Assembly (NCBI RefSeq): GCF_002283555.1
Contig: NZ_MVOI01000003.1
Span: 1,967,578 to 2,031,577 of the forward strand
Length of the DNA stretch: 64,000 nucleotides
DNA from: Rubrivirga sp. SAORIC476
GTDB taxonomy: Bacteria; Bacteroidota; Rhodothermia; Rhodothermales; Rubricoccaceae
Reading direction: 5' to 3'
Positions 23,093 through 44,479 of this stretch are shown here, piece after piece. A model generated the notes under the pieces. It made no database searches, was not told the DNA's origin, and was given only the letters and a program-made list of their open reading frames with translations. How positions within the stretch are numbered: the stretch's first letter is position 1; every line of letters begins with the position of its first letter. The translations under genes were made by a program, and so were the position numbers.

Positions 23093-23108
23093 AGGCACGA
23101 GCCTTGGA
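23093..23108 (+). promoter_or_regulatory. sigma-54-type promoter AGGCACG-AGCC-TTGGA
   Basis: It matches the -24/-12 consensus TGGCACG-N4-TTGCW in the -24 part and in spacing, with TTGGA in the -12 part. Inferred transcription start is near 23119, 20 bp before the tolC-like ATG. The same form occurs upstream of three precursor units in the locus. Confidence 0.6.
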
Positions 23109-23138: not shown

Positions 23139-24611
23139 ATGTTCGTCCGCCTCCTCGTCCTGCTCGCCCTCGCCGTCTCGGCCCGCGCGTCCGCCCAGGC
23201 GCCCGTGTCCCTCGCCGACGCCCTCGGCGCGGCCCGCCAGCAGAGCCCGGAGGTCGCCCTGGCGGGCGAGGCCATCGCCGGGGAGCGCGCCAACCTCCGC
23301 GCCGCCGCGAGCGCCTTCGACCCCCAGCTCTACGGCAGCGTCGGTGGCGGGCAGGCCGCCACCCCGAACCGCTCCTTCCAGGGCACCACGCCCGTCCTCG
23401 CGACCGCCGGGAGCGGCTACCAGCAGGTCGAGGTCGGCGTGCAGCGCCAGTACCGCTCCGGGCTCGCGCTGACCCCGCTCGTCCAGATGACGCGCACCGC
23501 CGCCGACGGCACCTCGGCCTTGCTCGAAACCACCGCCGGGGTCTCGCTCGCCTACCCGGTCCTCGGCGGGCGGGAGCGCAACACGGCCCTCGCCGCCGAG
23601 GACGCCGCCGGGCAACGCATCTCCGCCGCCCGCGCCGACCTCGACCGCGCCGCCGAGACCGCCGCCGCCGCCGCCGCCGTCGCCTACTGGGACTACGTCG
23701 GCGCGGTCCGCATCCAGGAGGCGCTCCAGGTCGCCGAGGCCCGCGCCGCCCGCCTCCTCGCCGACACCGAGGCCCTGGTCGCCGCCGACGAGCGCCCCGC
23801 CGCCGACCTCGTCGCCCTCCGCGCCGACCTCTCCCGCCGCCGCGCCGCCCGCCTCTCCGCCGACCAGTCCGTCTACGACGCCCGCCAGCGCCTCGGCCTC
23901 GCTATGGGCGGCACCGCCGCCGACGCCGACGCCCTCGGCCCGGCCGCCGACGCCCTTCCCGAGGTGCCTGCGACCGTCGAGGTGGACGAGGCCGCGCTCG
24001 TCGCCCGCGCCCTCGACGCCCGCGCCGACCTCCTCGGCGCCGACCTCCGCGTCCGCGCCCTCGACCGCGAGACCGCCGCCGCCACCGCCGACCTCCGTCC
24101 CTCCGTCGACGTGGTCCTCGACGCCGGCTACACGACGCTCAGCGAGGGCGCCGCGGCGCAGTTCCTCCCTGTCGGCGGCGCCTCGCGTGGCGGTCGCGTC
24201 GGCGTGTCGCTTCGCGTCAACCGGCTCGGCAGCGGCATCACCCGCGCCACCACCGAGCGCCAGCGCGCCACCCGCGAGCGCCTCCGCATCGCCCGCGACG
24301 ACCTCGCCCGCCGCATTCGCGCCGACGTGGCGGGGGCCATCGCCAGCCTCCGCAGCGGCGCCGCCGAGGTGTCCCAGACCCGCGAGGCCGTCGCCCTCTA
24401 CCAGGAGGCCGTCGAGAACGAGCGCCTCCGCCTCCGCCTCGGCATGGGGACGCTCTTCGACGTGCAGATCGTCGAGGAACGCCTCGCCAACGCCCGCACG
24501 TCGGCCGTCCAGGCGGAGGTGCGCTACGCGCAGGCGCTCGTCCGCCTCCACGCCGCCGTCGGCGCCCTCGGCCCCGCCGCCGACCTCTGCACCCTCCCTG
24601 CGGCCCCCTGA
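23139..24611 (+). CDS. TolC-family outer-membrane efflux protein
   Basis: A 490-aa outer-membrane channel. The signal peptide is FVRLLVLLALAVSARASAQA. Two internal repeats of the OEP family follow with long Ala/Arg-rich coiled-coil helices (VALAGEAIAGERANLRAAAS; DDLARRIRADVAGAIASLRS) and a conserved LFDVQIVEERLANARTSAVQ near the C terminus. It heads the operon with the NHLM secretion protein and two ABC exporters, so it should form the outer-membrane exit for the peptides made in this locus. A sigma-54-type promoter lies just upstream. Confidence 0.92.
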   Translation: MFVRLLVLLALAVSARASAQAPVSLADALGAARQQSPEVALAGEAIAGERANLRAAASAFDPQLYGSVGGGQAATPNRSFQGTTPVLATAGSGYQQVEVGVQRQYRSGLALTPLVQMTRTAADGTSALLETTAGVSLAYPVLGGRERNTALAAEDAAGQRISAARADLDRAAETAAAAAAVAYWDYVGAVRIQEALQVAEARAARLLADTEALVAADERPAADLVALRADLSRRRAARLSADQSVYDARQRLGLAMGGTAADADALGPAADALPEVPATVEVDEAALVARALDARADLLGADLRVRALDRETAAATADLRPSVDVVLDAGYTTLSEGAAAQFLPVGGASRGGRVGVSLRVNRLGSGITRATTERQRATRERLRIARDDLARRIRADVAGAIASLRSGAAEVSQTREAVALYQEAVENERLRLRLGMGTLFDVQIVEERLANARTSAVQAEVRYAQALVRLHAAVGALGPAADLCTLPAAP

Positions 24612-28424: not shown

Positions 28425-31241
28425 ATGACTGCCCCGACGCTCTCCGCCCCCTTCTCGCTCACCGGCATCGCCGACGCCACCCGCGTCGCGTCGGGGCATG
28501 TGGACGTGTTCGCCGTGCGGACCGACTCGGCTGGGACGCCCGTCGGCCGCCGCCGTCATGTCTGCCGACGGGCCGCGGGCGAGGCCTTCTTTCCCGTGCC
28601 GAGCGGGCGCATCGCGCTGCTGGCCGTGCCGTCGTCCGGCGCCGAGATGGTGCCCGTCGATCGGATGGTGGTCGACGTGGCGGCGCTCGTGGAGTCCTGG
28701 GTGACGGCCCTCGGCGAGGGCGTGTTTGATGGGACGCCACCCAAGGAGTCGGTGCGGCCGGTGCCGGGTGAGGTGCTGGAGGTCGAGGCGGGGGCGGCGC
28801 TCCGGAGCCGCGACCAGCTCGTGTGGGTCCGGTTCGAAGAGGGCGGGGCGACGCTGGGCGGGCGGCCCGAGCTGTCCACGAACGGCCGCGCCGTGCCCGT
28901 CGGCGCGCGTCCCTGGCTCGTGACCACGGCGCCCACGGTCGCGCACGTCGCCAGCACCGCCGAGCGGCTCGCCGAGGCGGGCCTGGACGCCGACCTGGAC
29001 GCCTTCCACGGCTTGGTCCTCAACGCGCTGGCGGCCGACGAGGACCGGGGCCTGGCGGCCGAGGGCGCCCGTGCCGCACGCCGCGCCGAGGGCGCCCGCG
29101 CGGCCCTCGCCGAGGGATCGAGCCACCTCGCGTCCATCCTCCTGCCCAACGCCGACGCCGTGGAGGCCGAGGCGGCTGACGCCCTGATGACGGCCGCCAT
29201 GCGCGTCGGGCGCGCACTCGGCGTCGAGATCGAGGCGCCGCCGGCGCGCGACCTGGCGGCCCGCCGCGACCGCGTCGGCGAGATCGCGCGGGCGTCGCGG
29301 CTGCGCGTCCGCAAGGTGGTTCTCTCGGGTGACTGGTGGCGCGCCGACGTGGGCCCGGTGCTGGGCATGGCGATGCCCGAGGGCGCCGGTCAGGCGCCGC
29401 GCCCGGTCGCGCTCCTCCGGCGGAAGGGCAAGACGGTCCTGCTCGACGGCGCGGACCAGACCGTCGTGACCGAGGCCGTCGCCGACCGCGTGCACCCGGT
29501 CGCGTTCACGTTCTACCGGCCGTTTCCGGACCGCGCGCTCTCGGCGCTGGACGTGGCGCGGTTCGGGCTGGCGGGCGGGTCCCGCGACCTCGGCGCCATC
29601 CTGGCCGTGGGGCTGGTCGTCGGCCTGCTGGGCCTGCTGACGCCGTACGTCACCGGCGAGCTGTTCCAGACGGCCATCCCCGAGGCCGACCGCGGGCTCC
29701 TGTTCCAGCTGATCGGCGCGCTGGTGGCGTCGGCCCTGGGCACGGCGGCGTTCCACGCCACGCGCGGGCTGGCGCTGCTGCGGCTGGAGAGCCGCATGGA
29801 CGTGACCGTCCAGGCCGCCGTCTGGGACCGGCTGCTCAAGCTGCCGACGGGCTTCTTCCGCCGGTTCACGGCGGGCGAACTGGCCAGCCGCGCGGGCGCC
29901 ATCAGTTCCATCCGCCAACTTCTCTCGGGCGCGACCATCACGTCGCTGCTGAGCGCCGTGTTCTCGGTGACGTACGTCGGGCTGATGCTGTGGTACAGCG
30001 TCACGCTGTCGCTGTGGGCGATCGGCCTGACGGGCATCGCCCTCACCTGTACGCTCGTCGCGTCGTGGGTCCAGTTGCGGCACCAGCGCGAGGTGTCCGA
30101 AGTACAGTCGCGCCTGCAGGGCCGCGTGCTCCAGTTCCTGACCGGCCTCACCAAGCTGCGCGTGGCGGGTGCCGAGGCGAAGGCGTTCTCGCACTGGGCG
30201 CGCGACTTTGGCCGCCAGCGGGCGCTGCAGGTCCGCGCCAAGCGCTCGGCCAACGGGCTGGGCACGTTCAATGCGGCGTTCCCCATCGTGTCGTCGCTGG
30301 TGCTGTTCGCCGTTGTCGCCTCGGGCGACGAAGGGCCGCTGCTGCCCATCGGCACGTTCGTGGCCTTCCATGCCGCCTACGCATCGTTCACGGCGGCCGT
30401 GCTGTCGCTCTCGGGCGCCTTTACGTCCGTGCTGATGGCGATCCCGCTCTACGAGCAGGCCGAGCCCATCCTGACGGCGCTGCCTGAGGTGGACGCCACC
30501 AAGGCCGACCCCGGCGAGCTGACCGGCCGCCTCGGCGTCGAGCACGCCACGTTCCGCTACGACCCCGAGGGCTCGCCGATCCTGCAGGACGTGACCATCC
30601 GCGCTGAGCCAGGCGAGTTCGTGGCGCTGGTCGGGCCGTCGGGGTCGGGCAAGAGCACCGTGCTGCGGCTGCTGCTGGGCTTCGAGACGCCCGAGGCAGG
30701 CGCCGTCCTCTACGACGACCACGACTTGGCCGAGATCGACGTGCAGGCCGTCCGCCGCCAGCTCGGCGTGGTGCTCCAGAGCGGCGGCCTCATGCAGGGC
30801 GACCTGTTCACCAACATCGTCGGCTCTAGCGGCGCCACCCACGACGACGCCTGGGAGGCCGCCCGCATGGCGGGCTTCGACCGCGACGTGCAGAAGATGC
30901 CGATGGGCATGCACACCGTCGTCAGCGAGGGCGGCACCACGCTCTCGGGCGGCCAGCGGCAGCGCCTCATGATCGCCCGCGCCATCGTCGGCAAGCCCCG
31001 CCTCCTCTTCTTCGACGAGGCGACCTCCGCCCTCGACAACCACACCCAGGCGACGGTCTCCCGCAGCCTGGAGGCCCTGGAGGCCACCCGCATCGTCGTC
31101 GCCCACCGGCTCTCGACGATCCAGAACGCCGACCGGATTTACGTGATCGACCGTGGTCGCGTGGTCCAGGAAGGCACATACGACGAGCTGCTCGCGGTGC
31201 CCGGCCTCTTCGCCGACCTCGCCGCCCGCCAGCTCGCCTGA
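28425..31241 (+). CDS. NHLM bacteriocin ABC transporter permease/ATPase
   Basis: A 938-aa second exporter typical of NHLM loci. It has no peptidase Cys. The N-terminal ~370 residues are a cytoplasmic regulatory region (from CNMP-like folding in the family; FAVRTDSAGTPVGRR, PVPSGRIALLAVPSSG). A six-helix permease domain follows (AILAVGLVVGLLGLLTPYVT onward), and the ATPase domain has [13 protein letters not shown] and LSGGQRQRLMIARAI. In NHLM systems it acts with the peptidase-type exporter, possibly as a heterodimer. The order adaptor, peptidase-ABC, ABC is the standard NHLM order. Confidence 0.92.
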   Translation: MTAPTLSAPFSLTGIADATRVASGHVDVFAVRTDSAGTPVGRRRHVCRRAAGEAFFPVPSGRIALLAVPSSGAEMVPVDRMVVDVAALVESWVTALGEGVFDGTPPKESVRPVPGEVLEVEAGAALRSRDQLVWVRFEEGGATLGGRPELSTNGRAVPVGARPWLVTTAPTVAHVASTAERLAEAGLDADLDAFHGLVLNALAADEDRGLAAEGARAARRAEGARAALAEGSSHLASILLPNADAVEAEAADALMTAAMRVGRALGVEIEAPPARDLAARRDRVGEIARASRLRVRKVVLSGDWWRADVGPVLGMAMPEGAGQAPRPVALLRRKGKTVLLDGADQTVVTEAVADRVHPVAFTFYRPFPDRALSALDVARFGLAGGSRDLGAILAVGLVVGLLGLLTPYVTGELFQTAIPEADRGLLFQLIGALVASALGTAAFHATRGLALLRLESRMDVTVQAAVWDRLLKLPTGFFRRFTAGELASRAGAISSIRQLLSGATITSLLSAVFSVTYVGLMLWYSVTLSLWAIGLTGIALTCTLVASWVQLRHQREVSEVQSRLQGRVLQFLTGLTKLRVAGAEAKAFSHWARDFGRQRALQVRAKRSANGLGTFNAAFPIVSSLVLFAVVASGDEGPLLPIGTFVAFHAAYASFTAAVLSLSGAFTSVLMAIPLYEQAEPILTALPEVDATKADPGELTGRLGVEHATFRYDPEGSPILQDVTIRAEPGEFVALVGPSGSGKSTVLRLLLGFETPEAGAVLYDDHDLAEIDVQAVRRQLGVVLQSGGLMQGDLFTNIVGSSGATHDDAWEAARMAGFDRDVQKMPMGMHTVVSEGGTTLSGGQRQRLMIARAIVGKPRLLFFDEATSALDNHTQATVSRSLEALEATRIVVAHRLSTIQNADRIYVIDRGRVVQEGTYDELLAVPGLFADLAARQLA

Positions 31242-31282: not shown

Positions 31283-32521
31283 ATGCGTCCCGCACGACTC
31301 TCTTTTCCCGCTAGCGCGGCGGCCCTCCTCGCCCTCGCGCTCTTTACCTCGGCCTGTGGGCCGGACGACCCCGCCACGCTCCGTGCCGAACGGGCGGCCC
31401 AGGCCGAGGGCGACCTCGTGGTCGGCGTCGCCTGGCCCTGGGAGGCGCGGACCGCCGGGCTCTACGCCGAGGGCCTCGACATGGCCGTCGAGGAGGTCAA
31501 CGCCAACGGCGGCGTGCTCGGGCGCCCGCTCCGGCTCGTCCGCGGCGACGACGACGAGTCGGTCGACGGCGGTCGGCTGGTCGCCCAGCGCTTCGCCGAT
31601 GACCCGGACGTGGTCGCCGTCATCGGCCACCTCAACTCGCACGTCACGATCCCGGCGGCTGACATCTACGAGCGCGGCGGCCTGCTGATGCTCACGCCCG
31701 CGTCCACGGCGCCCGAGCTGACGCGCCGCGGACACCGCCGCATCTTCCGCAGCGTCCACGACGACGAGGACGTGGGCCGCCAGATGGTGGCCCTCGCGGC
31801 CGAGAACGGCTGGCGCCGCGTCTACGTGGTCTACGTCCGGACGTCCTATGGCGAGGGGCTCGCGACGGCGTTCGAGGCGGCCGCCACCGACAGCCGCGTC
31901 GCCGTCGTGGGCCGCGCGGCCTACGGTGCCGACGGCTCCGGCCTCGACGCGCTCGTCGGCGATGTCCGCCAGACGCGCGGCGCGCGCGGCGTGGACGCGG
32001 TCTTCCTGGCTGGCGTGCCGCCCGAGGCGGGTTCGGTCATCGCGGCGCTGAGGCGCGGCGGCGTGGGCGCGCCCATCTTCGGCGGCGACGCGCTCGACAC
32101 GGTCGAACTGGTCGAGTCGGCCGAGGGCGCGGCCGAGGGCGTCTACGTGGCGAGCGTGTTCCACCCGGACGACCCGCGCCCCGAGTCGCAGGCCTTCCGC
32201 GTGGCCTTCGAGGCCCGGTACGGGACCGCGCCCGACTCGTGGGCTGCCCGTGGCTACGAGGCCGTCCGTGTGCTCGCGCAGGCCATGGAGGCGGCGGGCT
32301 CGGCCGCGCCGGACGCCGTCGCGGCGGCGCTCCGCGACGGCGGCCAGCTCAGCGGCATCACCGGCCCCTTTGGCTTCGACGACAAGGGGGATGTCGTGGG
32401 CAAGCGCCTCGTGACGGCGGTCATCCGGGGCGGCCAGTTCCAGTACCACAGTACGGGGGACATGGCCGCGACTCACGCCGAGGTTCCGATCCGCTCCACC
32501 AGCACTCCCGCGGGCGACTGA
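31283..32521 (+). CDS. periplasmic substrate-binding lipoprotein (LIV-BP-like, type 1 fold)
   Basis: A 412-aa lipoprotein. The signal ends in the lipobox LFTSACG. The mature protein is a two-lobed periplasmic-binding fold of the branched-chain amino-acid receptor kind: GVAWPWEARTAGLYAEGLDM, VNANGGVLGRPLRLVRGDDD, then AVIGHLNSHVTIPAADIYER. No cognate permease is present, so it is unlikely to serve classical uptake. Its place between the exporter and a precursor gene suggests a sensing or peptide-binding role, perhaps immunity or feedback (inference). Confidence 0.88.
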   Translation: MRPARLSFPASAAALLALALFTSACGPDDPATLRAERAAQAEGDLVVGVAWPWEARTAGLYAEGLDMAVEEVNANGGVLGRPLRLVRGDDDESVDGGRLVAQRFADDPDVVAVIGHLNSHVTIPAADIYERGGLLMLTPASTAPELTRRGHRRIFRSVHDDEDVGRQMVALAAENGWRRVYVVYVRTSYGEGLATAFEAAATDSRVAVVGRAAYGADGSGLDALVGDVRQTRGARGVDAVFLAGVPPEAGSVIAALRRGGVGAPIFGGDALDTVELVESAEGAAEGVYVASVFHPDDPRPESQAFRVAFEARYGTAPDSWAARGYEAVRVLAQAMEAAGSAAPDAVAAALRDGGQLSGITGPFGFDDKGDVVGKRLVTAVIRGGQFQYHSTGDMAATHAEVPIRSTSTPAGD

Positions 32522-32599: not shown

Positions 32600-32794
32600 A
32601 TGAGCAACGACCCCACGAACACCGCCGCCTCCGAGACCGAACTGTCCGACGAGGCCCTCGAGGCCGCCGCGGGTGGCGTCACGGGCGGTGGCGACACCGG
32701 CATCGTCGGCGGCTGCACGGAGCCCGACCTCGGCGGCGGCGCGTCCGGCGGCGGCGGCGACTTCGGCGGTGGCGGCGCCGGAGGTGGCTGGTAG
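32600..32794 (+). CDS. RiPP precursor A: double-glycine leader with Gly-rich core
   Basis: A 64-aa peptide. The leader of about 26 residues ends LSDEALEAAAGG, matching the leader ends of four other peptides in this locus. The core (residues 27-64) is more than half Gly, begins VTGGGDTGIVGGCTEPD and ends GGGAGGGW, with one Cys and very few Ser/Thr. It is therefore a poor lanthionine substrate; a glycine-rich bacteriocin-like or other modified peptide is possible. It lies 78 bp after the binding-protein gene and is followed by a hairpin and an HExxH protein. Confidence 0.82.
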   Translation: MSNDPTNTAASETELSDEALEAAAGGVTGGGDTGIVGGCTEPDLGGGASGGGGDFGGGGAGGGW

Positions 32795-32870: not shown

Positions 32871-33980
32871 ATGATGCTCCCCAGCCCCCCTGCCGACCTC
32901 GCGCACCGGACGGACCGCCTCCGCCGCCTGGGCGCGGCGGAGGCCGACCTCGATACGCTCCTGGCCTACACCGACAGCCCTTTCACCTTCTCCGGCCCGC
33001 AGACCCTCGACGACGAGCCGTTCGTGTCGGCCTGGGAGGGCTACCTCGCCGAGGCCGAGGCAGGCGATGTGTTCGCGGTGCTCCAGCAGGCCATCGTCCA
33101 GCTCCGGTTTCCCGTTCGCGCGGGGATCGGAGACACCGAGGTGTACCGGGCGGCCACCCGTCGGGGAGACCTGGCCGCCCTCGGGCCCGACGGCCTGTTC
33201 GAAGGCGGCCTCCAGCTGGTCGCCCCGGACCGCCTTCGCCTGGAGCTCCAGCCGACCCCGGCGGGCCGGATTCCGGTCCTGACCGCTCCCGTGCGCGAGG
33301 ATTTTGTCGCGCTTCTCCAGGCCCTGACGCGCCGGAACGAGCCCGTTCCCATCCCCGCATCGATGGGGGCGCTCATGGTGAGCGGGTACAACAACTGGGA
33401 CCGCGTTCGGCGATACCGCCGCACGTGGGAGGCCTCCGGCGCGAAGGGCTCCTGGGAAGAGGCGTTCCAGGCCCTGATTCCACATCGAGCGCGGTACCAG
33501 GACCGATTCGTGCTGCTCAGCGAGGGCCCTTACGCGGGCGTCGCCGCCTCCGCCCTCGGCGTTGAGGAGGACGAGTGGATCCAGGTCTCCCACGTCATCC
33601 GGCGCGAGCACGAGTGTGCCCACTACTACACGCGCCGTGTGCTGGGCGCGATGACCTCCAACGCCTTCGAGGAGATGATGGCCGATGCGTATGGGGTGAC
33701 CGTGGCCACCGGGAGATGGCGCCCGGACGCGGTCCGCCGCCTGCTCGGGCTGGCGGACACCGGAGGGCGGCCCCTCGACGGGGGGCGCATCTGGAACTAC
33801 CAGGGCTCCCTCCGTCCAGACGCCTTCGCCGTCGTCGTCCGGCTGGTGGACGAGATCCTCGACGGCCTCGACGTGCCCGCGGAAGCGGGGGCATCGGCCG
33901 AGGCGGCCCACCTGCTCCGGCACCTCGCCGCCGAGTGCTACCCGAGCACCTCCAGCGCTCGCGAGGGTATCCCGCACTGA
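32871..33980 (+). CDS. HExxH-motif protein of RiPP locus (putative metallopeptidase-like)
   Basis: A 369-aa protein with no signal peptide. REHECAHYYTRRVLGAM contains H247-E248-X2-H251. NAFEEMMADAYG (E267/E268, D272) follows at the spacing expected for a third zinc ligand. The N-terminal half has no known domain. I recall similar proteins (possibly DUF7005) near lanthipeptide synthetases, but am not sure of the number. It may trim the core peptide or have lost catalysis and act as a binding protein. Start ATG 32871; a second ATG follows directly. It is the last gene of the forward peptide operon. Confidence 0.75.
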   Translation: MMLPSPPADLAHRTDRLRRLGAAEADLDTLLAYTDSPFTFSGPQTLDDEPFVSAWEGYLAEAEAGDVFAVLQQAIVQLRFPVRAGIGDTEVYRAATRRGDLAALGPDGLFEGGLQLVAPDRLRLELQPTPAGRIPVLTAPVREDFVALLQALTRRNEPVPIPASMGALMVSGYNNWDRVRRYRRTWEASGAKGSWEEAFQALIPHRARYQDRFVLLSEGPYAGVAASALGVEEDEWIQVSHVIRREHECAHYYTRRVLGAMTSNAFEEMMADAYGVTVATGRWRPDAVRRLLGLADTGGRPLDGGRIWNYQGSLRPDAFAVVVRLVDEILDGLDVPAEAGASAEAAHLLRHLAAECYPSTSSAREGIPH

Positions 33981-34029
33981 ACGAGGCGGCCCTGGCCGTA
34001 CCAGGCGCCCGAGGCGGGTAGGGAGAGCC

Positions 34030-34437: not shown

Positions 34438-34497
34438 GGAGGGGAGAGGGGACGGGCCCGAGTCTACGGCCCCGGGCAGCTGGAATCTACCGCTGCC

Positions 34498-35538
34498 TCA
34501 CGCGTCGCATTCCGCTTCGACCCATCGAATGGCCGACTCGAGGACCGCGGGGCCCTCCGCGTCCACGTCGGGTGCGATCGGGCCCGCATATCGGCGGCCT
34601 GTCCGGTCCACGAACACACCGGTGGTCACGATCAAGAGTGCGCCATCGTCCAGCCGAACGGTCTGGTTTGCCGTCGGGACGCCGTATGTGGGCGAGCCGA
34701 AGCTCGCCGAGCGCGGGCGCCCCCGGAACGCGACGACGAGGGCCTCCGCCGAACTCGCCGTCAGGCTATCGGTCAGCACGGCCACCGGCGGCGTCCCGTC
34801 GAGGACCACAGGGGACTCGACGGTAAGCTGGGGGGCGGAGAGGGGGAGGATGCCCGCCAGGCGGAGGCGGAGCGAGACCTTTCCTCCGGCGTAGCGCCAC
34901 CCCATGTCCGACGGCCCCGGCACGTCGATTCCTCCGGCCTCGCCCTCACCCACGAGCGGCCCCGTGCCGGCCAGCATGGGCCAGAGATCCCCGCCCTGGT
35001 TCCCGCGGAGGTCGAGGACCCAGCCGCAGGGCTCGTCGTCGGCCAGTTGGGCGAGCGCGCCGTGGATCGCCTCCGCGAGGCCCGACCGCCGCTCGGGGTC
35101 GTCGTAGATGGCCGTGCCCAGGCGGAGGACGGCCACGGAGCCCACGGATCGCCCGTCGACAGGCGGCCCCTGCTCGGCCCGGCTCGCGCTCCGGCCGGCC
35201 GCCACCTGATCCGCCGTCACGAACGCGCTGTGGCCGTCGCCGAGCGCCTCGACGGCGTGGCGGATGGCCGGGTACGTCTCGGCGGGGGAGTCGGCGTTTC
35301 GCGCCAGGTCTGCTACGGCGTCGAGGGCCTCGGCGTTGAGCCTGTCGGCGTGGAGGGCCTCCTCCTGGAGGATCGTCAGGGCCCGAACTAGGTAGGCCTC
35401 GGCCCCGGGGGTGATGTCGCCGAGGTCGCGGGAGCCGAGCGGATGTCTTGGCCCGCAGCCTGCGATCACCGCCAGCAGCGCGACGGTGAGCCAGGCCCGG
35501 CCGATTCGACTAGGACCAGGTGAGGAACGATGGCGCAT
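34498..35538 (-). CDS. S41-family C-terminal-processing peptidase-like lipoprotein
   Basis: A 346-aa protein. The signal ends in the lipobox VIAGCGP. The S41 fold is seen in GWVLDLRGNQGGDLWPMLAG and the nucleophile region AVLTDSLTASSAEALVVAFR, followed by SFGSPTYGVPTANQ. The PDZ domain of typical CtpA proteins is absent. The ATG at 35538 overlaps the LanM stop by 29 bp, so translation is probably coupled. An outer-facing serine peptidase tied to the synthetase could finish leader removal after export or degrade stray peptide. Confidence 0.87.
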   Translation of the reverse strand: MRHRSSPGPSRIGRAWLTVALLAVIAGCGPRHPLGSRDLGDITPGAEAYLVRALTILQEEALHADRLNAEALDAVADLARNADSPAETYPAIRHAVEALGDGHSAFVTADQVAAGRSASRAEQGPPVDGRSVGSVAVLRLGTAIYDDPERRSGLAEAIHGALAQLADDEPCGWVLDLRGNQGGDLWPMLAGTGPLVGEGEAGGIDVPGPSDMGWRYAGGKVSLRLRLAGILPLSAPQLTVESPVVLDGTPPVAVLTDSLTASSAEALVVAFRGRPRSASFGSPTYGVPTANQTVRLDDGALLIVTTGVFVDRTGRRYAGPIAPDVDAEGPAVLESAIRWVEAECDA

Positions 35539-38467
35539 GAGAGGGGGCGTGGAGGCGCAGCAGGACGAGGCCGACACCGGAGAGGCCGGTGTAGAGACCG
35601 GGGTCGAAATATCCGGCGCCGTACTGGGCGACGTACGTTCCGTCGGCCCGGAGAGTCAGCCGCGCGGCCATGCCGCGGGCCGCGTCGGCGAGGGGGCCGT
35701 GGCCGCCGGAAACCTCGAACGCCGCAGCGACCCGCCCGAACGCGCCGCAGCAGGCGTGGTCGCGAGGCTGGTCGGCCAGGTCGAGAAGCCGGGCGGCTGC
35801 CTCGGCCAGCGGCCCGGGGGCCTCGATGTCGGGACCGTCTCCGGAGGAGGCGAGCGCGAGAAGGACGCCTGCCGTCCCGTGGCACCACATGTCGGAGGCA
35901 GGCTCGGGCGCGGCTTCGGAATCGTCCAGCCGGTCCAACCGGATCCACGAGGCGGTCGCCGAATCCATCCGTGACTGGACGTAGCCGATCGCATCGGCGG
36001 CGGCGGCGGTGTGCCGCTCGGTCCCGGCCAGCGCCCCGACACGCCGGAGGGCGTCCGCGATGCCGGCTACCCCGTGGGCGTACCCGATCAGGACGCCCTC
36101 CTCGGCAGAGGGCCATACCGCATGGCCTCGGAGCGAGAGGCGCGCCTGCAGGAGCCGGTCCGCACACCGAACGGCGAGGTCCAGTGCCCGCGCGCTCCCG
36201 GTGAGCTCATGGACACGGCTGAGACACAGGGCCGCGCCCGCCGACCCGGCGATCACGTCCAGGGCCTCGTCGCGGTCGATGGCCTCGGGGTCAAGGTGGT
36301 CGAGGGCGTCGACGGATGCGTCGGACCACGCGGGGTGGTCGAGGAGTCGGCCCGCCTCGGCGAGCGCGTACAGCACCGACGGCAGGCCGGTCGTCCCGCC
36401 GAGGCCGCGCACACGTCCCGCCCGGACCCGTCCCGCGAGGCCGTCGAGGAGCCTGCGCGCCATCCGCTCGGACGCGTCCGAGCCTCGGATCGCCGCGTGT
36501 GCTGCGAGAAACAGGCCGACTCCCGCCACGCCGTCGTGGAGCGACACCCCCGGCGGGGAGACCTCGCACCGGTCCAGGGCGGCCACACGGTCGACGTGGG
36601 GCCAGATCAGTGTCCCATCGGGCTGCTCGAACAGACCCGCTCGGATCTGGGCCGACACCGCGTCGGCCGCGGACCCGAGGTCGGCCGGGCTGGCGGCGGG
36701 CAGCCGGCGCCTGGGGGCGGGAAGGACGGTGGTTCCGTTCGAGCGCCGGGTGAAGAGGGCTGCCCGGATCGAGGCCTGCTGGAAGGCGAGGTCGTCGAGG
36801 GAGAGCGCCTGGATCCGGGCCTGGGTCCGTGCGAGCCCGCTCTCGGCGAAGAAGTGCGGGATGGGGCCCGCCGAGGTCTCGAGGGCCGTGCTGTCTACCG
36901 TCGCCTCGAAGAAGGGGACATCGAGGACATCGAGGGTCGCCTTCTCGTCGTGGACGATGGGGGCCCACGCCTCGCTGCCTTCGGCATGGAGGAGAGGGCG
37001 GAAGAGGAGGTCGAGTTCGAGGTCGCGGAGATCCGGGTCTCGAAGATGTCGGCACGTGAGGGCCTGGCGTGTCAGGGACCCGTAGGTCCGCGTGTGGCGG
37101 AACAGAAACCGCGTCCGGGCGCCATCGAACGCCGAGAGGGGCCCACCCGTCGAGCCCAACTCCTCGCGCCGGTCAGCGAAGAACCGGTAGGCGGCCTCGA
37201 ACCCGGCCATCAGGTCGTCCTCGTAGTCTTCGGGGTGGGCGGGCCCCGAGTGGGCGTGTGGAACGTTCTTCCTCGGGCCGTCGGGTGAGGGACCCGCGTC
37301 GAGCAGCCCCATCTCGCCGCTGAAGCCCCCGGTGTCGATCCGGAGCGACCCGGCGCCTGACCAGTGGGGGAGGAGCGAAGTCGAGACCACCGACTCGGAG
37401 ATGACGGCCGCCGGGGCGGCCGCGCCGAGCGTCGGTGGGTGATGGGCGAGCAGGACTTCGAGATCGATCGGAACCGGACCGTCCGGCCCCGCCACGATGT
37501 TTTCGAAGTGGAAGTCGCGGCCCCCGAGCATGTGGAGGGTGCACAGGAGGGCCCCGGCGCGCTGATAGTACCTGGCCGGGTCGACCGAGCCCTTCGCCTC
37601 GGCGATGAACTCGGCCCACCCGTGGGATCGGCGCCCGACTACTCGGGGAGAGTGGACGACCGGGCCGTTCTCGGCCGCCATCCACGCGGCGAACCGCCCG
37701 AACGCTAGGTCAAGGTCGACCGGGCGCGGTTTGTACACGGCCTTGAACCCGGAGCCGAACGTGGCGATCACGACCGAACGCCCCCGGCGATGCGGGTCGG
37801 AGAGGCCCGTCGAGACATCGACGAGGGGGCCGATGGCGCGGTCTCCCGTCCAGGCCTTCGCCGCCGCCTCGATGGACGACCGGTCTCGGCCGAGCCGACG
37901 CGCAAACTCCACCGTCGACTCGACCCAGTACAGCGCGCGCGTGGGGACGAGGCGAGCCAGGACGGGATAGTCCTCGAACAGGGTGTCGCCCGCGTCGCTC
38001 GCCAGGTCGGCAACGAACCCGGCGTAGACCTCGTCTGCGTTCCCACCCCGGATCGACTTCCGCACCGCGTAGGCCGTCCGAAGCGGATGGGAGGCGAGGG
38101 TGGCCAGTTCCGCTCCCAGCGCGGCCTCGAACCGATGGAGGACGGGGGCAGGCAGGGCGTCCTCCGGGCCGAGCGTGGCTCGGACGCGCTCGGCCGCCGC
38201 AGCGACCCACGGCGCCCAGGCCTCGACGAACGGGGTGCCTCCAGAAGGGACTTTGGCCCTCATGGAGCCCTCCCATCCCGAGGCCAGGCGGCGGGCGTCT
38301 GCCGTGAGCGCGGCGAGGGCGGGGGCGTCTGCACAGGGGGGCGCCGGTCCGGCATCGGTCCCGGAGAGCGCGCGCGGAGGGGCGCCGAGGCGGAGGCGGG
38401 CGTGGATCCGGGTGGAGTCGCCGCGCGCGGCGAGAGCGACCCAGCGGTCGGTGGCGGGGAGGGCCAT
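35510..38467 (-). CDS. lanM: class II lanthipeptide synthetase LanM
   Basis: A 985-aa bifunctional enzyme that dehydrates Ser/Thr and closes lanthionine rings. The N-terminal DUF4135 dehydratase part has DVSTGLSDPHRRGRSVVIAT, GFKAVYKPRPVDLDLAFGRF and GGRDFHFENIV. The C-terminal LanC-like cyclase has GVAGVGLFLAAHAAIRG, GYAHGVAGIADAL, WCHGTAGVLLAL (C862-H863) and HACCGAFGR (C906-C907). The CCG form of the zinc site is like ProcM-type synthetases that accept many substrates. The ATG at 38467 gives MALPATDRW, the natural N terminus. It lies downstream of precursor B, separated by a hairpin. Confidence 0.94.
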   Translation of the reverse strand: MALPATDRWVALAARGDSTRIHARLRLGAPPRALSGTDAGPAPPCADAPALAALTADARRLASGWEGSMRAKVPSGGTPFVEAWAPWVAAAAERVRATLGPEDALPAPVLHRFEAALGAELATLASHPLRTAYAVRKSIRGGNADEVYAGFVADLASDAGDTLFEDYPVLARLVPTRALYWVESTVEFARRLGRDRSSIEAAAKAWTGDRAIGPLVDVSTGLSDPHRRGRSVVIATFGSGFKAVYKPRPVDLDLAFGRFAAWMAAENGPVVHSPRVVGRRSHGWAEFIAEAKGSVDPARYYQRAGALLCTLHMLGGRDFHFENIVAGPDGPVPIDLEVLLAHHPPTLGAAAPAAVISESVVSTSLLPHWSGAGSLRIDTGGFSGEMGLLDAGPSPDGPRKNVPHAHSGPAHPEDYEDDLMAGFEAAYRFFADRREELGSTGGPLSAFDGARTRFLFRHTRTYGSLTRQALTCRHLRDPDLRDLELDLLFRPLLHAEGSEAWAPIVHDEKATLDVLDVPFFEATVDSTALETSAGPIPHFFAESGLARTQARIQALSLDDLAFQQASIRAALFTRRSNGTTVLPAPRRRLPAASPADLGSAADAVSAQIRAGLFEQPDGTLIWPHVDRVAALDRCEVSPPGVSLHDGVAGVGLFLAAHAAIRGSDASERMARRLLDGLAGRVRAGRVRGLGGTTGLPSVLYALAEAGRLLDHPAWSDASVDALDHLDPEAIDRDEALDVIAGSAGAALCLSRVHELTGSARALDLAVRCADRLLQARLSLRGHAVWPSAEEGVLIGYAHGVAGIADALRRVGALAGTERHTAAAADAIGYVQSRMDSATASWIRLDRLDDSEAAPEPASDMWCHGTAGVLLALASSGDGPDIEAPGPLAEAAARLLDLADQPRDHACCGAFGRVAAAFEVSGGHGPLADAARGMAARLTLRADGTYVAQYGAGYFDPGLYTGLSGVGLVLLRLHAPSHAPSFLTWS

Positions 38468-38491
38468 GGAAGGGGGGAGGGGGAATGCGAA

Positions 38492-38524
38492 AGGTGCCCG
38501 CACGGCGCGGGCCGGCGGGCACCT
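38492..38524 (-). terminator. hairpin between precursor B and lanM (attenuator-like)
   Basis: A perfect 10-bp stem AGGTGCCCGC / GCGGGCACCT with a 13-nt loop. On the minus strand it is followed by TTTCGCATT. It probably limits lanM expression relative to its precursor, as is common in RiPP operons. Confidence 0.6.
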
Positions 38525-38549
38525 CATGGGCGTCCTGGAAGGGGTGCCC

Positions 38550-38921
38550 TTACGTCGTCTCGATGCAGACCGCGGCCCAGCTCTTGAAGCAGTCGCAGGT
38601 GAACGTGCAGATCCAGGACTCGGACTCGGCCTGGACGCCGCCCGCGACGGCCTCGAGGTCCGCCTCCGAGAGCTCGGCCTCGGCCGGAGCCTCGTCCGGG
38701 ATCACCACGACGTTCTCGCCGCTCGCGACGCCGAGGTCGGCGCTGACGAACGTGATCGACGGGAGCTGGTCGGCCGGGTAGCCGGCGGAGGCGAACGCCT
38801 CGTGGAGGTCGGCAGCCGGGTCGTTGATGAGGCGTGCCTTCAGGGCGTCGTCGGTCGTGGCGCGGAGGACGAGGCGCTCGATGATGCGGTCGGGGGCCAC
38901 GGTGGGCTTCTGGTTAGCCAT
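38550..38921 (-). CDS. RiPP precursor B: NHLP leader with four-Cys lanthipeptide core
   Basis: A 123-aa precursor. The ~95-residue leader is of the nitrile-hydratase-like type (RIIERLVLRATTDDALKARL, then DLGVASGENVVVIPDEAP) and ends LSEADLEAVAGG. The core of 28 residues begins VQAESESWICTFTCDCFKSW and ends CIETT. It contains four Cys and six Ser/Thr, ideal for lanthionine rings. It is encoded just upstream of lanM in the same operon, so it is the primary substrate. The ATG at 38921 is chosen for its fit to the family leader. Confidence 0.93.
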   Translation of the reverse strand: MANQKPTVAPDRIIERLVLRATTDDALKARLINDPAADLHEAFASAGYPADQLPSITFVSADLGVASGENVVVIPDEAPAEAELSEADLEAVAGGVQAESESWICTFTCDCFKSWAAVCIETT

Positions 38922-39008
38922 TGGAGTCTGTGTTCGGTGTGAAAGGGTGTTTCGGTTTGAGAGACCGTCGAGGCTGCGAAGGCCGCCTCTGGGGTCTGCC
39001 ACGAGAGC

Positions 39009-39024
39009 TCCAAGGGCTGTGCCA
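39009..39024 (-). promoter_or_regulatory. sigma-54-type promoter TGGCACA-GCCC-TTGGA for precursor B-lanM operon
   Basis: Read on the minus strand, the -24 half is a perfect TGGCAC and the -12 half is TTGGA, with canonical spacing. Inferred start of transcription is near 38998, leaving a 77-nt leader before precursor B. Confidence 0.6.
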
Positions 39025-39076
39025 AGAGGCCGTGAAGGGCTTCAGGACCTCCTGTGCCCGTCGGGGGGCCGGAGGG

Positions 39077-39113
39077 TAGAGCCCGGGTTCGGCTTGTCGG
39101 GCCGGAGGCTCTA
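39077..39113 (-). promoter_or_regulatory. inverted TAGAGCC repeat, putative activator site (or terminator)
   Basis: TAGAGCC at 39077-39083 and GGCTCTA at 39107-39113, extended to 8 bp by flanking G/C. It lies 79-115 bp upstream of the inferred transcription start of the precursor B operon. It is also just past the stop codon of the activator gene, so it could double as that gene's terminator. Confidence 0.5.
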
Positions 39114-39125
39114 CTGGCGCGGGCC

Positions 39126-40265
39126 TCAGGCCGCGTTCCGCCGGTACCGCTCAGGCTTGAGGCGGTGGTGGCGGAGGAAGTCCATGAACTTGAGGTACTC
39201 CGCCTCGGGCAGCCCGAAGGCCCGGAGGGCGCGCTTGTAGCTGCCGCCTGCCTCGGAGAGCCCGCGCTCGACGATCTGGCGGACCTCGTCGCGGTTGAGC
39301 TCACGGTCCAGGTACGGATCCCGGACGACGGACCAGAAGGAGCCCTGGCCGCGCGACATCTGGGCGTAGGGGTCGCCGGTGCCGCCCGCGGCCATCGCCA
39401 GCGTGCGCTCGTCGAGTTCGTCGGGATCGGCCCGGAGCTCGGGCTCCACGTCGGCTGCCTCGATGGTGTCGCCGAGGCAGAGGCAGAAGGCCGTGTCGAG
39501 CAGGCCGCGGACTTCGCGGACGTTGCCCGGCCACGGGTAGCCTGTCAGGGCACGCACGGCGGACTCGCCCAGCAGGCGGTCCGCGCCGGCCTGGCGGCAG
39601 AGCTGGGCGAGGTACGCCTCGGCGATCATCCGCCAGTCGTCGCCGCGCTCGCGGAGGGCGGGCACGTGCAGCCGGAGCGGTGCCAGCCGGTAGTACAGGT
39701 CCTCGCGGAACGTGCCGTCGGCCACCATCGCACGCAAGTCGCGGTTGGTGGCCGCCACGACGCGCACGTCGACGCGCCGGGCCGCCGACTCGCCGAGGCG
39801 GACGATCTCGCCCACGCCGATGGCGCGCAGCAGGGCCGCCTGAGCGCGCGGCGTCAGCTCGCCGACTTCGTCGAGGAACAGCACCCCGCCGTCGGCTTCT
39901 TCGAACAGGCCCTTCCGGTCCTCGGTGGCGCCCGTGAACGAGCCCTTCTTGTGGCCGAACAGCTCGGAGATGAGCAGGTTCTCGTCGACGAACTGGGCGC
40001 AGTTGACACCCACGAACGCGCGCCCGGTGCGCGGCGACAGCAGGTACGTGGCGCGGGCGAACAGTTCTTTGCCCACGCCGCTCTCACCCGTGATAAGGAC
40101 GGGGCGGTCGACACGGGCGAACCGGTCCAGCCGGGTCTGGGCGGCGAGGAGGCCGGGCGAGGTCCCGATCATGCGAACGACGCCGGTGCGACCCCAGATG
40201 GCTTCGGACAGAGCCGCGATGCGGGAGGCGAGAGGCGTGAGCCAGGCGGAGGTAGGAGCAGGCAT
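39126..40265 (-). CDS. sigma-54-dependent enhancer-binding activator without receiver domain
   Basis: A 379-aa AAA+ activator of RpoN promoters. A short N-terminal stretch (~50 aa) has no receiver or GAF domain. The AAA+ module begins near GTSPGLLAAQTRLDRFARVD, with Walker A GESGVGKE, sigma-54 contact loop GSFTGAT (GAFTGA variant) and Walker B GVLFLDEVGEL. YPWPGNVREVRGLLDTAF is conserved near the end. The C-terminal Fis-like helix-turn-helix region contains SYKRALRAFGLPEAEYLKFM. Like PspF it may be controlled by a partner rather than by phosphorylation. It sits behind a small secreted peptide and next to four putative sigma-54 units. Confidence 0.92.
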   Translation of the reverse strand: MPAPTSAWLTPLASRIAALSEAIWGRTGVVRMIGTSPGLLAAQTRLDRFARVDRPVLITGESGVGKELFARATYLLSPRTGRAFVGVNCAQFVDENLLISELFGHKKGSFTGATEDRKGLFEEADGGVLFLDEVGELTPRAQAALLRAIGVGEIVRLGESAARRVDVRVVAATNRDLRAMVADGTFREDLYYRLAPLRLHVPALRERGDDWRMIAEAYLAQLCRQAGADRLLGESAVRALTGYPWPGNVREVRGLLDTAFCLCLGDTIEAADVEPELRADPDELDERTLAMAAGGTGDPYAQMSRGQGSFWSVVRDPYLDRELNRDEVRQIVERGLSEAGGSYKRALRAFGLPEAEYLKFMDFLRHHRLKPERYRRNAA

Positions 40266-40294
40266 GGGACCAGAGTGCAGGAGAGAAGCGAGGG

Positions 40295-40459
40295 TTACAG
40301 GCAGACGATATGGCCCATGATGATGATGCACTTCTGGTCGGGGTCGTCGGAGGCGAGGGCGTCCTGGACCTGCGTCGCGGGTCCGGTCTCGGGTGCCGAC
40401 AGAGCTTGGGCCGGGAGGGTCGGGGCGAGGAAGAGGGCGAGGGCAGCGAGGAGGAACAT
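40295..40459 (-). CDS. small secreted peptide upstream of the sigma-54 activator
   Basis: A 54-aa ORF. The N-terminal signal peptide is MFLLAALALFLAPTLPAQAL. The mature part of about 30 residues ends DPDQKCIIIMGHIVCL with two Cys. The ATG at 40459 is preferred over an upstream frame extension. The stop lies 30 bp before the activator start, so they share a transcript. I do not recognise it. It could be a signalling peptide or a regulator partner, or a spurious ORF; its signal sequence and spacing favour a real gene. Confidence 0.55.
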   Translation of the reverse strand: MFLLAALALFLAPTLPAQALSAPETGPATQVQDALASDDPDQKCIIIMGHIVCL

Positions 40460-40748
40460 GGCCAGGGAGGAAGGAGTGGTGCGGGGTGGAGCCACAGTTT
40501 GCGTAGTGGAGCCCACTCTCTACTAGGCACACTCTGACCCTTCGTGGTGGTCGTTCTGCAAAGCTCGCCCGTCGGCTCTGCTACGTGCATGTCTATCAGG
40601 GAGACGAGTCGTGCTCGCAAGGCGACTAGCGGAACTAGTCGATCGGTCTATGGCCGAGGGACGGTCCTGGAAAAGAGACTCGTGAAGTGCGGGGTGGGCC
40701 CCGCTCCCTCGCGTGCGAGAGGCCCGATCTCGCGATGGGTCTCTCCCT
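40460..40748. other. 289-bp intergenic region upstream of the peptide-activator operon
   Basis: A lower-GC region between two minus-strand operons. It holds a perfect 7-bp inverted repeat CGACTAG-cggaa-CTAGTCG at 40623-40641 that could be an operator. No gene was found. Confidence 0.4.
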
Positions 40749-41867
40749 CTATCGCCCGGGCGCCTCCTCCACGGCCTCGGCGCGCGGCACCGAGACCTGC
40801 ACGCGGAAGCCGCCTTCGGAGCGGTTCGCCACGTGGAGCGTCCCGGACACCGCGTCGGCTCGTTCCTGCATGCCGAGCAGCCCGAAGTGGCCGTCGGCGG
40901 CGAGGGCAGAGAAGTCGGTCACGGCGCCGAGGCCGGGGCCGTCGTCCTCGATGATGAGGCAGACCTCGTCGTCCGACAGGTCGAGTTCGAGGCGGAGGGT
41001 CGCCGGAGGCCCGTGCTTGGCCGCGTTGTTCATGGCCTCCTGCGCGATCCGGAACAGTGCGAGGCGGATGGGCTCGGGGAGCTTGAGGCCGTCGGGGGCG
41101 AGGGCGAGGCGGACCTCGATGCCGGGGTGCCGTCGGCGGAACCGGTCGGCATGGGCGGAGAGGGCGGCGGAGAGCCCGAACGGGCCAAGCGCGGGGGGGC
41201 GGAGCGCCTCGGTGATGCGGCGGAGGTCCTCGACGACGGTGTGGGCGTCGTCCTGCGCGCCGCGGACACGCGGCCGAGCGGCAGCGTCGCCGTCGAGCGC
41301 GTCGGCGGCGAGGCCGAGCTGCATGCGAAGCGCGTGGAGGTCCTGGAGCGGGCCGTCGTGGAGTTCGCGCGCCAGCTGTCGGCGTTCGTCCTCGCGGCTC
41401 TCGGCCAGTTGCCGCCTGGCCTCCTGAAGCTGCCGCCGCTTGTCGAGTTCCTTGAGGTAGCGGCGGCGGTAGACGTAGAGAGGCAGTATCGCCACCAGAA
41501 CGACCGCCCCGCCGAGCAGCCCCAGCAGGACGTAGAAGGTGGCGCGCGGGATGTCGATGTTGACGCGCTGGCTCCGCCCCTCGACCGCGTCCTGCACGCG
41601 CGTCTGGATCGACTGCTGGTAGAACTGCGGAATCAGGATGCGCCCGCCGTAGGGGTCCTCAACCTCGATCCAGGTCTTGCCGAGGCTGGTGGAGCCCTCG
41701 GCGCCATCCGCGTCGAGCGCCCGGTAGCGCCACGTGCCCAGGCGCTCGGCCCCCATCACGTAGAAAGAATCCCAGGCGAGGGCCTCGCGGAGGGCCGGGG
41801 GCGTCTGCGCCATCGCTGGCACGGCGACGAGCGAGACAGCGAAGACGAGTCGGGAGAGGCTCAGCAC
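40749..41867 (-). CDS. sensor histidine kinase, NarL/DesK type (HK1)
   Basis: A 372-aa membrane sensor. The signal peptide or first helix is LSLSRLVFAVSLVAVPAMAQ. A ~100-residue extracytoplasmic domain follows, then one membrane helix (FYVLLGLLGGAVVLVAILPL) and a coiled coil. The HisKA_3 phosphoacceptor is RQLARELHDGPLQDLHALRM. The HATPase has IAQEAMNNAAKHGP and IIEDDGPGLG. It is the last gene of an operon with the response regulator and a second related kinase, so both probably feed the same regulator. Confidence 0.92.
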   Translation of the reverse strand: MLSLSRLVFAVSLVAVPAMAQTPPALREALAWDSFYVMGAERLGTWRYRALDADGAEGSTSLGKTWIEVEDPYGGRILIPQFYQQSIQTRVQDAVEGRSQRVNIDIPRATFYVLLGLLGGAVVLVAILPLYVYRRRYLKELDKRRQLQEARRQLAESREDERRQLARELHDGPLQDLHALRMQLGLAADALDGDAAARPRVRGAQDDAHTVVEDLRRITEALRPPALGPFGLSAALSAHADRFRRRHPGIEVRLALAPDGLKLPEPIRLALFRIAQEAMNNAAKHGPPATLRLELDLSDDEVCLIIEDDGPGLGAVTDFSALAADGHFGLLGMQERADAVSGTLHVANRSEGGFRVQVSVPRAEAVEEAPGR

Positions 41868-41888
41868 ACGCGGTGGGGCTCGGCCGCG

Positions 41889-42506: not shown

Positions 42507-42531
42507 CGGGGCGTTGGGGTACCGCCAGAGG

Positions 42532-43311: not shown

Positions 43312-43380
43312 CGCTTCCTGGTCAACGTCGCACCGTCTGGGGCGCGATCCGCGACGGAGGCCGCAGGCTGAGAGGATGTC

Positions 43381-43731: not shown

Positions 43732-43760
43732 CGGGAGGGAGGGAGGGGTGCGAAAGGGGG

Positions 43761-43776
43761 TTCAATCCCCGTGCCG
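43761..43776 (-). promoter_or_regulatory. sigma-54-type promoter CGGCACG-GGGA-TTGAA for precursor C
   Basis: Read on the minus strand it matches GGCACG-N4-TTG with correct spacing; the -12 half ends AA. Inferred transcription start is near 43750, 19 nt before the precursor C ATG. Confidence 0.55.
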
Positions 43777-43817
43777 CGGGGCTAGGAGGGCCCGCGGAGG
43801 GGATGGGGCCGGTCGAG

Positions 43818-43845
43818 TAGAGGGCGCCCTCGGCCGGGTAGGGCT
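43818..43845 (-). promoter_or_regulatory. weak TAGAG/TAGGGCT half-sites upstream of precursor C promoter
   Basis: TAGAGGG (43818-43824) and TAGGGCT (43839-43845) lie about 68-95 bp before the inferred transcription start. They resemble the TAGAGCC sites of the other units but are imperfect. Confidence 0.25.
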
Positions 43846-43889
43846 GTCGCTCTGTCGGGCGGGGGGCGCCGAGAGGCGCGAAATGACGA

Positions 43890-43922: not shown

Positions 43923-43945
43923 TTCAGAGCGGAACGGGATCGGGG

Positions 43946-44095
43946 CTAGGCGACCGGGTCGCCGTCGGGGGTCCAGGGGTCGTCGGGGGTCCAGGTCCAG
44001 TCCCCGTCGGCGCCACCGGCGACGTCCTCGAGCTGGCTGTCGTCCAGTTCGTTGGGGTCGAAGGTGTCGGGGGTCTCGTTGTTGGTCGTGCTCAT
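43946..44095 (-). CDS. RiPP precursor D: short leader, Trp/Pro/Asp core
   Basis: A 49-aa peptide. The leader (28 residues) ends LDDSQLEDVAGG. The 21-residue core, reading ADGDWTWTPDDPWTPD and ending GDPVA, contains two WTP repeats (WTWTPDD and PWTPDGD) and no Cys. It is unlike lanthipeptides; an unmodified or otherwise modified Trp-rich acidic peptide is possible. It lies 25 bp after precursor E and is followed by a hairpin. The DDSQLEDVAGG end is a standard double-glycine cleavage site. Confidence 0.82.
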   Translation of the reverse strand: MSTTNNETPDTFDPNELDDSQLEDVAGGADGDWTWTPDDPWTPDGDPVA

Positions 44096-44120: not shown

Positions 44121-44333
44121 TCAGGCAGACGCGGAGGAGTCCGCGCGCCAGTCCACGAGGAAGTCGGCCGCGGCCCGGTAGACCTCATCCGAGACGAGGC
44201 TCCCCCCGACGACGGCGTCGAGGGCATCCGGGTCGAGGGATACCGAGCCCAGAGCGGTCTCGTGGATCGCGTCGGCGAGCCGACACGCGGTGGTTCGGTA
44301 GCTCTCGGTGGAGCCAGCAGGCTGGGGAGTCAC
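44121..44333 (-). CDS. RiPP precursor E: double-glycine leader, Cys-free core
   Basis: A 70-aa peptide starting at GTG 44333. The leader (44 residues, with one Cys) ends LDPDALDAVVGG. The 26-residue core begins SLVSDEVYRAAADFLVDWRA and ends DSSASA, with no Cys. The GTG overlaps the TGA of a 30-codon upstream ORF (GTGA), so translation may depend on it. It shares a transcript with precursor D, and a sigma-54-type promoter lies upstream. Confidence 0.75.
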   Translation of the reverse strand: MTPQPAGSTESYRTTACRLADAIHETALGSVSLDPDALDAVVGGSLVSDEVYRAAADFLVDWRADSSASA

Positions 44334-44463: not shown

Positions 44464-44479
44464 TCCAACGACCGTGCCC
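44464..44479 (-). promoter_or_regulatory. sigma-54-type promoter GGGCACG-GTCG-TTGGA for precursors E-D
   Basis: Read on the minus strand it has GGCACG-N4-TTGGA, the same -12 half as two other promoters of the locus. Inferred transcription start is near 44453. Confidence 0.55.

What the first reader, a model, noticed from the sequence alone, without database searches (positions are those of the whole stretch)
38550..38921. Predicted new lanthipeptide: NHLP leader with a 28-residue four-Cys core
The core has Cys in WICTFTCDCF and in VCIET near the end, with Ser/Thr before and between them, and sits next to a CCG-type (ProcM-like) LanM. Up to four (methyl)lanthionine rings are possible. The core is rich in Trp/Phe and not similar to lanthipeptides known to me.
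Basis: partly seen in the sequence, partly recalled or inferred. Interest (0 to 1): 0.65.

Follow-up and report, generated by a model that had tools for sequence, protein, structure and literature searches.

The report
Lanthipeptide precursor beside its LanM synthetase
A bacterium of the Bacteroidota phylum carries a gene for a short four-cysteine peptide next to a complete enzyme that should tie it into rings and a pump that should cut and export it; the peptide is new, but it belongs to a well-known kind of natural product.

Summary
Complement 38550-38921 is a real coding frame (GC3 0.96) for a 123-aa precursor: an NHLP-like leader ending in Gly-Gly and a 28-residue core, VQAESESWICTFTCDCFKSWAAVCIETT (4 Cys, 7 Ser/Thr). 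A full-length LanM lies 82 bp downstream on the same strand. All nine dehydration residues mapped from CylM are conserved, and the three zinc ligands are Cys/Cys/Cys (CCG type, ProcM-like). An NHLM exporter with a C39 peptidase (plus HlyD and outer-membrane protein) is encoded 7-15 kb away. The leader scores below the TIGR03793 cut-off (27 vs 50.9 bits), yet matches a solved NHLP leader. No relative of the precursor was found. LanM is in only 2 of 114 genomes of the order; the same two, of 40 checked, hold the exporter. The cluster is an island beside rpoN, absent from congeners. Shared sigma-54-like elements precede the precursor, the exporter operon and two of those peptides, and a sigma-54 activator gene adjoins. 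Verdict: a credible new class II lanthipeptide, a new member of a known kind; dehydration, rings and function are untested.

The parts
38550..38921 (-). lanthipeptide precursor (LanA), 123 aa; leader 1-95 ending AGG; core 96-123 with 4 Cys and 7 Ser/Thr
35510..38467 (-). class II lanthipeptide synthetase LanM, 985 aa (alternative start 38527 lies at the hairpin); CylM-equivalent residues D224 H226 K246 D318 H320 N323 D335 R453 T459; zinc ligands C862, C906, C907 (CCG type)
38491..38525 (-). strong RNA hairpin between precursor and LanM genes (whole 85-nt spacer -40.8 kcal/mol, z -5.3); no T-run terminator, possible attenuator or mRNA stabiliser
39009..39024 (-). sigma-54-like element TGGCACAGCCCTTGGA, 88 nt before the precursor ATG
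39126..40532 (-). sigma-54-dependent activator (AAA+ Sigma54_activat domain, GSFTGA loop), directly upstream of the precursor
23093..23108 (+). sigma-54-like element AGGCACGAGCCTTGGA, 31 nt before the exporter operon
23139..24611 (+). outer-membrane efflux protein (TolC-like)
   Evidence: PF02321
24660..25925 (+). HlyD-type membrane fusion protein
   Evidence: PF13437
25970..28291 (+). NHLM exporter subunit 1 with C39 Gly-Gly peptidase (ECGAAA Cys, HFLVL His, NDP Asp)
   Evidence: TIGR03796, 1096 bits, over cut-off; motifs read from sequence
28425..31241 (+). NHLM exporter subunit 2 (permease/ATPase)
   Evidence: TIGR03797, 916 bits, over cut-off
31283..32521 (+). periplasmic amino-acid-binding-protein-like; also follows the exporter in G030 (64% identity)
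32600..32794 (+). second Gly-Gly peptide, Gly-rich core with 1 Cys
32871..33980 (+). DUF7005 protein with HECAH motif (zincin-like), a recurrent neighbour of NHLM exporters
34498..35577 (-). S41-type peptidase, overlaps the end of lanM
   Evidence: PF03572
43381..43731 (-). NHLP/Nif11-like Gly-Gly peptide, core WDEARDRAVAVVDRAIDAVDWRASDPWAL without Cys
43761..43776 (-). sigma-54-like element CGGCACGGGGATTGAA, 30 nt before gene 43381-43731
43946..44095 (-). short Gly-Gly peptide, core ADGDWTWTPDDPWTPDGDPVA without Cys
44121..44333 (-). short Gly-Gly peptide, core SLVSDEVYRAAADFLVDWRADSSASA without Cys (GTG start)
44464..44479 (-). sigma-54-like element GGGCACGGTCGTTGGA, 131 nt before gene 44121-44333

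Best explanation
A class II (LanM-type) lanthipeptide system. Inferred steps: the cytoplasmic LanM binds the leader, phosphorylates and eliminates Ser/Thr in the core (7 candidates) to Dha/Dhb, and its Cys3-zinc cyclase domain adds the four Cys thiols to them, giving up to four (methyl)lanthionine rings. The C39 peptidase domain of the NHLM exporter cuts after Gly-Gly, and ABC1/ABC2, HlyD and the outer-membrane protein release the roughly 28-residue product. Transcription of the precursor-lanM unit and of the exporter operon is probably switched on together by the neighbouring sigma-54 activator. Shown by sequence: all genes, active-site residues, Gly-Gly site, gene order, and the shared upstream element. 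Not shown: dehydration, ring pattern, cleavage, activity.
For: Coding precursor with Gly-Gly NHLP-like leader and 4-Cys core. Complete adjacent LanM, same strand, 82 bp downstream, with all nine CylM dehydration residues reported as important (PMC4550811) conserved and a Cys3 zinc site. NHLM exporter with C39 peptidase plus HlyD and OEP. LanM found in 2 of 114 genomes of the order; of 40 relatives searched for the exporter, the same two hold it above cut-off. NHLP next to LanM and the NHLM exporter are established associations (PMC2887384; PMC7268733), and an independent Bacteroidales contig shows the same trio (L109).
Against: The precursor is below the NHLP family cut-off and has no homologue found anywhere searched, so conservation of its Cys and Ser/Thr could not be tested. 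LanM is only about 26-34% identical to any relative found. Exporter and LanM lie on opposite strands 4 kb apart, so the exporter could serve other peptides. No immunity gene was recognised.
Confidence: 0.86

Rival explanations
1. LanM's main substrates are the Cys-free Gly-Gly peptides of the island (dehydrated only), and the four-Cys peptide is exported unmodified or as a disulfide peptide.
For: At least three neighbouring Gly-Gly peptides have Cys-free cores. The only other LanM of the order (G030) has lost all three zinc ligands and sits beside a Cys-free Gly-Gly peptide; another cluster of the phylum (G309) pairs a cyclase-free LanM dehydratase with mostly Cys-free NHLP peptides.
Against: The window's LanM keeps all zinc ligands, which a dehydratase-only role would not need, and the only peptide directly beside it carries four Cys. 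The Cys-free cores here have few Ser/Thr and lie 5-9 kb away.
Confidence: 0.07
2. Promiscuous ProcM-like system: one LanM modifies several precursors, the four-Cys peptide being one of many.
For: CCG zinc site as in ProcM, which the literature links to promiscuity (PMC10783134, PMC12328550); several Gly-Gly peptides nearby.
Against: No second Cys-rich NHLP precursor was found in the genome: only weak sub-threshold hits to the Cys-free peptides of the same island.
Confidence: 0.1
3. Degraded or silent cluster; the precursor is no longer expressed.
For: Present in one species only, absent from congeners.
Against: All frames intact, codon bias normal, active sites conserved, upstream elements present.
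Confidence: 0.05

Closest known systems
NHLP-leader class II lanthipeptides with NHLM exporter (Haft et al. 2010, PMC2887384; families II 2, 13, 17, 25, 29 in PMC7268733)
   Same: Long NHLP leader ending Gly-Gly, LanM neighbour, three-part NHLM transport cluster with C39 peptidase
   Different: Leader divergent (27 vs 50.9 bits); core unrelated to any core found here; found in a Bacteroidota member where LanM is rare; sigma-54-like elements and an activator gene in the cluster
ProcM/prochlorosins (CCG-type LanM)
   Same: Cys-Cys-Cys zinc site in the cyclase domain; Gly-Gly leaders; Cys-bearing core
   Different: Precursor leader is NHLP-like, not Nif11; one Cys-rich precursor instead of dozens; exporter and modifying enzyme in one island
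NHLP/LanM/NHLM cluster on an uncultured Bacteroidales contig (L109, CAJAUM010000003.1)
   Same: NHLP leaders, LanM, NHLM ABC1 and HlyD; one core GQFTGFSFCHTCGCDSFTRECE also has C-x2-C-x-C-x6-C
   Different: LanM 28% identical; core similarity not above shuffled cores (P 0.44)

Membership tests
Class II lanthipeptide system | LanM with DUF4135 dehydratase and LanC-like cyclase domains | tested here: met
   PF13575 285 bits, PF05147 120 bits, TIGR03897 554 bits over cut-off
Class II lanthipeptide system | Catalytic residues for phosphorylation/elimination and zinc ligands | tested here: met
   Residues aligned to CylM/LicM2 and LanM relatives (residue list from PMC4550811)
Class II lanthipeptide system | Precursor with leader and a core containing Cys and Ser/Thr next to LanM | tested here: met
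Class II lanthipeptide system | (Methyl)lanthionine in the product | not testable with these tools
   needs mass spectrometry
NHLP precursor family (TIGR03793) | Score above the curated cut-off of 50.9 bits | tested here: not met
   27 bits, E 3e-6, aligned over model 5-77 of 77; described as NHLP-like only
NHLP precursor family (TIGR03793) | Architecture: nitrile-hydratase-related leader of about 80-95 aa ending Gly-Gly, with NHLM exporter in the cluster | tested here: met
   Match to solved NHLP leader 8tb1 over 15-96, E 0.0026; TIGR03796 and TIGR03797 over cut-off
CCG-type (ProcM-like) LanM | Three Cys zinc ligands (WC...CC) | tested here: met
   C862, C906, C907
CCG-type (ProcM-like) LanM | Broad substrate tolerance | not testable with these tools
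   requires enzyme assays
Sigma-54 promoter | GG at -24 and GC at -12 (TGGCAC-N5-TTGCW) | tested here: inconclusive
   GGCAC kept in all four elements, but -12 reads TTGGA or TTGAA rather than TTGCW

The most novel reading that the evidence does not exclude
The island is a sigma-54-type-controlled multi-peptide secretion unit: one activator turns on the NHLM exporter, a LanM-cyclised four-Cys peptide and several Cys-free NHLP-type peptides through a shared NGGCAC-N5-TTGRA element, with DUF7005 as a conserved zincin-like processing partner, so that a lanthipeptide is released together with unmodified or dehydrated-only companions.
Probability: 0.35. Interest if true: 0.55.

Novelty: new member of a known kind. 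Interest (0 to 1): 0.36.

Why it matters
It adds a predicted class II lanthipeptide with an unrelated Trp/Phe-rich four-Cys core from a phylum from which, per PMC7268733 (2020), only the pinensins had been isolated, and where LanM is rare. The gene set is complete and small enough for direct expression. The shared upstream element with a local sigma-54 activator gives a testable handle on how such clusters are switched on, and the related cyclase-dead LanM and the DUF7005 neighbours point to a wider NHLP export theme in Bacteroidota.

Tried and rejected
Relatives of the precursor: none by tblastn in genome contigs, in 60 relatives (two weak hits, one read (L006) and not a precursor; the other (L005) lies in a 407-aa frame and was not followed) or plasmids. 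Core similarity to 16 other LanM-associated cores: not clearly above shuffles (best P 0.013 in 16 tests); an apparent C-x-C resemblance to L109 was dropped (P 0.44). Sigma-70 promoter and intrinsic terminator near the precursor: none. Rfam: nothing in 31200-45000. LanM in phages: one unannotated Enterococcus phage fragment only. No structure prediction was run: CylM/LicM2 already cover LanM, and a single-sequence DUF7005 model was judged unlikely to be reliable.

Full report
Observation. Complement 38550-38921 encodes 123 residues, ATG start, with the codon-position GC pattern of a real gene in this 72% GC window (0.66/0.48/0.96). The leader ends ELSEADLEAVAGG and the core is VQAESESWICTFTCDCFKSWAAVCIETT: 28 residues, four Cys, seven Ser/Thr. 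The leader aligns to the NHLP model TIGR03793 over nearly its whole length at E 3e-6 but at 27 bits, below the curated 50.9, and to the solved NHLP leader 8tb1 (E 0.0026). It is therefore a divergent NHLP-like leader. Four Cys in 28 residues is unlikely in this proteome (about 1e-5 per stretch), though one neighbouring protein stretch reaches five.

The synthetase. LanM (35510-38467, 985 aa from the second ATG) is complete. The ATG at 38527 lies at the foot of a strong hairpin of the intergenic RNA (85-nt spacer -40.8 kcal/mol, z -5.3), so the later start is more plausible. Aligned to CylM and LicM2 and to three other LanMs, it keeps the residues that PMC4550811 tested in CylM: D252, H254, K274, D347, H349, N352, D364, R506 and T512 correspond to D224, H226, K246, D318, H320, N323, D335, R453 and T459. 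The zinc ligands are C862, C906 and C907, the CCG type that the literature ties to ProcM.

Export. A TolC-like protein, a HlyD protein, NHLM ABC1 with C39 peptidase and NHLM ABC2 form one run of + strand genes at 23139-31241. The peptidase keeps Cys, His and Asp motifs (read from sequence). The likely path is therefore modification by LanM, cutting after Gly-Gly, and release through this exporter. This is inferred from established class II lanthipeptide biology and was not measured.

Distribution. No relative of the precursor was found in one genome per 84,980 species (pattern scan that reaches close relatives only), in 60 relatives or in plasmids. LanM is in 2 of 114 genomes of the order, the window's own and G030; the NHLM exporter passes its cut-off in the same two of 40. 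The phylum is inferred as Bacteroidota because G402, listed as same phylum, has the contig length of the Mucilaginibacter rigui record. In two congeners rpoN is 87-90% identical, but no window gene tested between 11.5 and 44.3 kb is found in the 17-20 kb fetched beyond rpoN. The cluster is thus an accessory island whose right edge lies between 44.3 and 44.6 kb. The left edge was not determined.

Other peptides of the island. At least four further Gly-Gly peptides occur at 32600-32794, 43381-43731, 43946-44095 and 44121-44333. Their cores have one or no Cys, so they cannot form multiple lanthionines as the named peptide can. Comparable Cys-poor NHLP sets lie next to or near NHLM exporters in G139 and G309.

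Regulation. A sigma-54 activator gene (39126-40532) lies just upstream of the precursor, and rpoN itself within 45052-47355. Scanning with a sigma-54 consensus (weights from memory), the best upstream score among 43 gene starts belongs to the precursor; second and third are the exporter operon and peptide 43381-43731, and fifth is peptide 44121-44333. All four read NGGCAC[AG]-N4-TTG[GA]A. This pattern occurs four times in the window against 0.05 in shuffles, but it was derived from those sites, so that number is circular. Genome-wide the looser GGCAC-N5-TTGNW gives 22 sites (control 16), four of them here. The canonical GC at -12 is replaced in all four, so the element may be an unusual sigma-54 promoter or another kind of site; I rate sigma-54-type control as likely but unproven.

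Accessory genes. DUF7005 (32871-33980) carries HECAH, a zincin-like motif. Of 13 DUF7005 loci found in 12 genomes of the phylum sample (own included), 10 have an NHLM ABC1 and/or ABC2 homologue on the fetched stretch, several of the others being cut by contig ends, and G340, without one, has Nif11-type peptides nearby. No paper in the library names DUF7005. A processing role is a guess.

Comparison and novelty. NHLP precursors with LanM, and the NHLM transporter trio, were described by Haft et al. (PMC2887384), and several class II families use NHLP leaders (PMC7268733). The system is a new member of that kind with an unrelated core. I could not test conservation of the core, chemistry or activity. 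Interest is modest: predicted lanthipeptides with new cores are common, while the island's apparent co-regulation and companion peptides add some.

Noticed in passing
L040:9762-12248 (-) and 9280-9489 (-) (genome G030): LanM whose zinc ligands are all lost (WGYG instead of WCHG, ATG instead of CCG) next to a Cys-free, Thr/Pro-rich Gly-Gly peptide: a natural dehydratase-only LanM system candidate.
   Followed up: partly
L152:4937-6889 (-), 280-2502 (-), 6915-12435 (-) (genome G309): NHLP cluster with a LanM dehydratase domain lacking any cyclase, a stand-alone Lant_dehydr_N (LanB-type) protein and about eight mostly Cys-free NHLP peptides, about 20 kb from an NHLM exporter and DUF7005.
   Followed up: partly
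window 32871-33980 (+) and L151, L154, L155, L157-L160, L162, L163: DUF7005 (PF22541, HExxH) is a recurrent neighbour of NHLM exporters and Nif11/NHLP peptides in this phylum; no literature found.
   Followed up: partly
window 23093, 39009, 43761, 44464: Four sigma-54-like elements with an unusual -12 (TTGGA/TTGAA) before RiPP genes, with a sigma-54 activator gene and rpoN in the same window.
   Followed up: partly
window 38491-38525 (-): Very stable GC hairpin without T-run between precursor and lanM genes, possibly setting the precursor/enzyme ratio.
   Followed up: no
L011 (G000:C3:1733628-1734614): A second LanC-like protein with a separate upstream kinase-like protein elsewhere in the genome, resembling a split class III/IV synthetase.
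   Followed up: no
window 40295-40516 (-): Small ORF with a signal-peptide-like start and a short DQKCIIIMGHIVCL tail, overlapping the start of the activator gene's longest frame; unexplained.
   Followed up: no
L156:3-1420 (genome G155): Three NHLP-type peptides with repeated Ser/Thr/Cys-rich cores (GSCxSTASTC...KCG) near a LanM-like hit.
   Followed up: no
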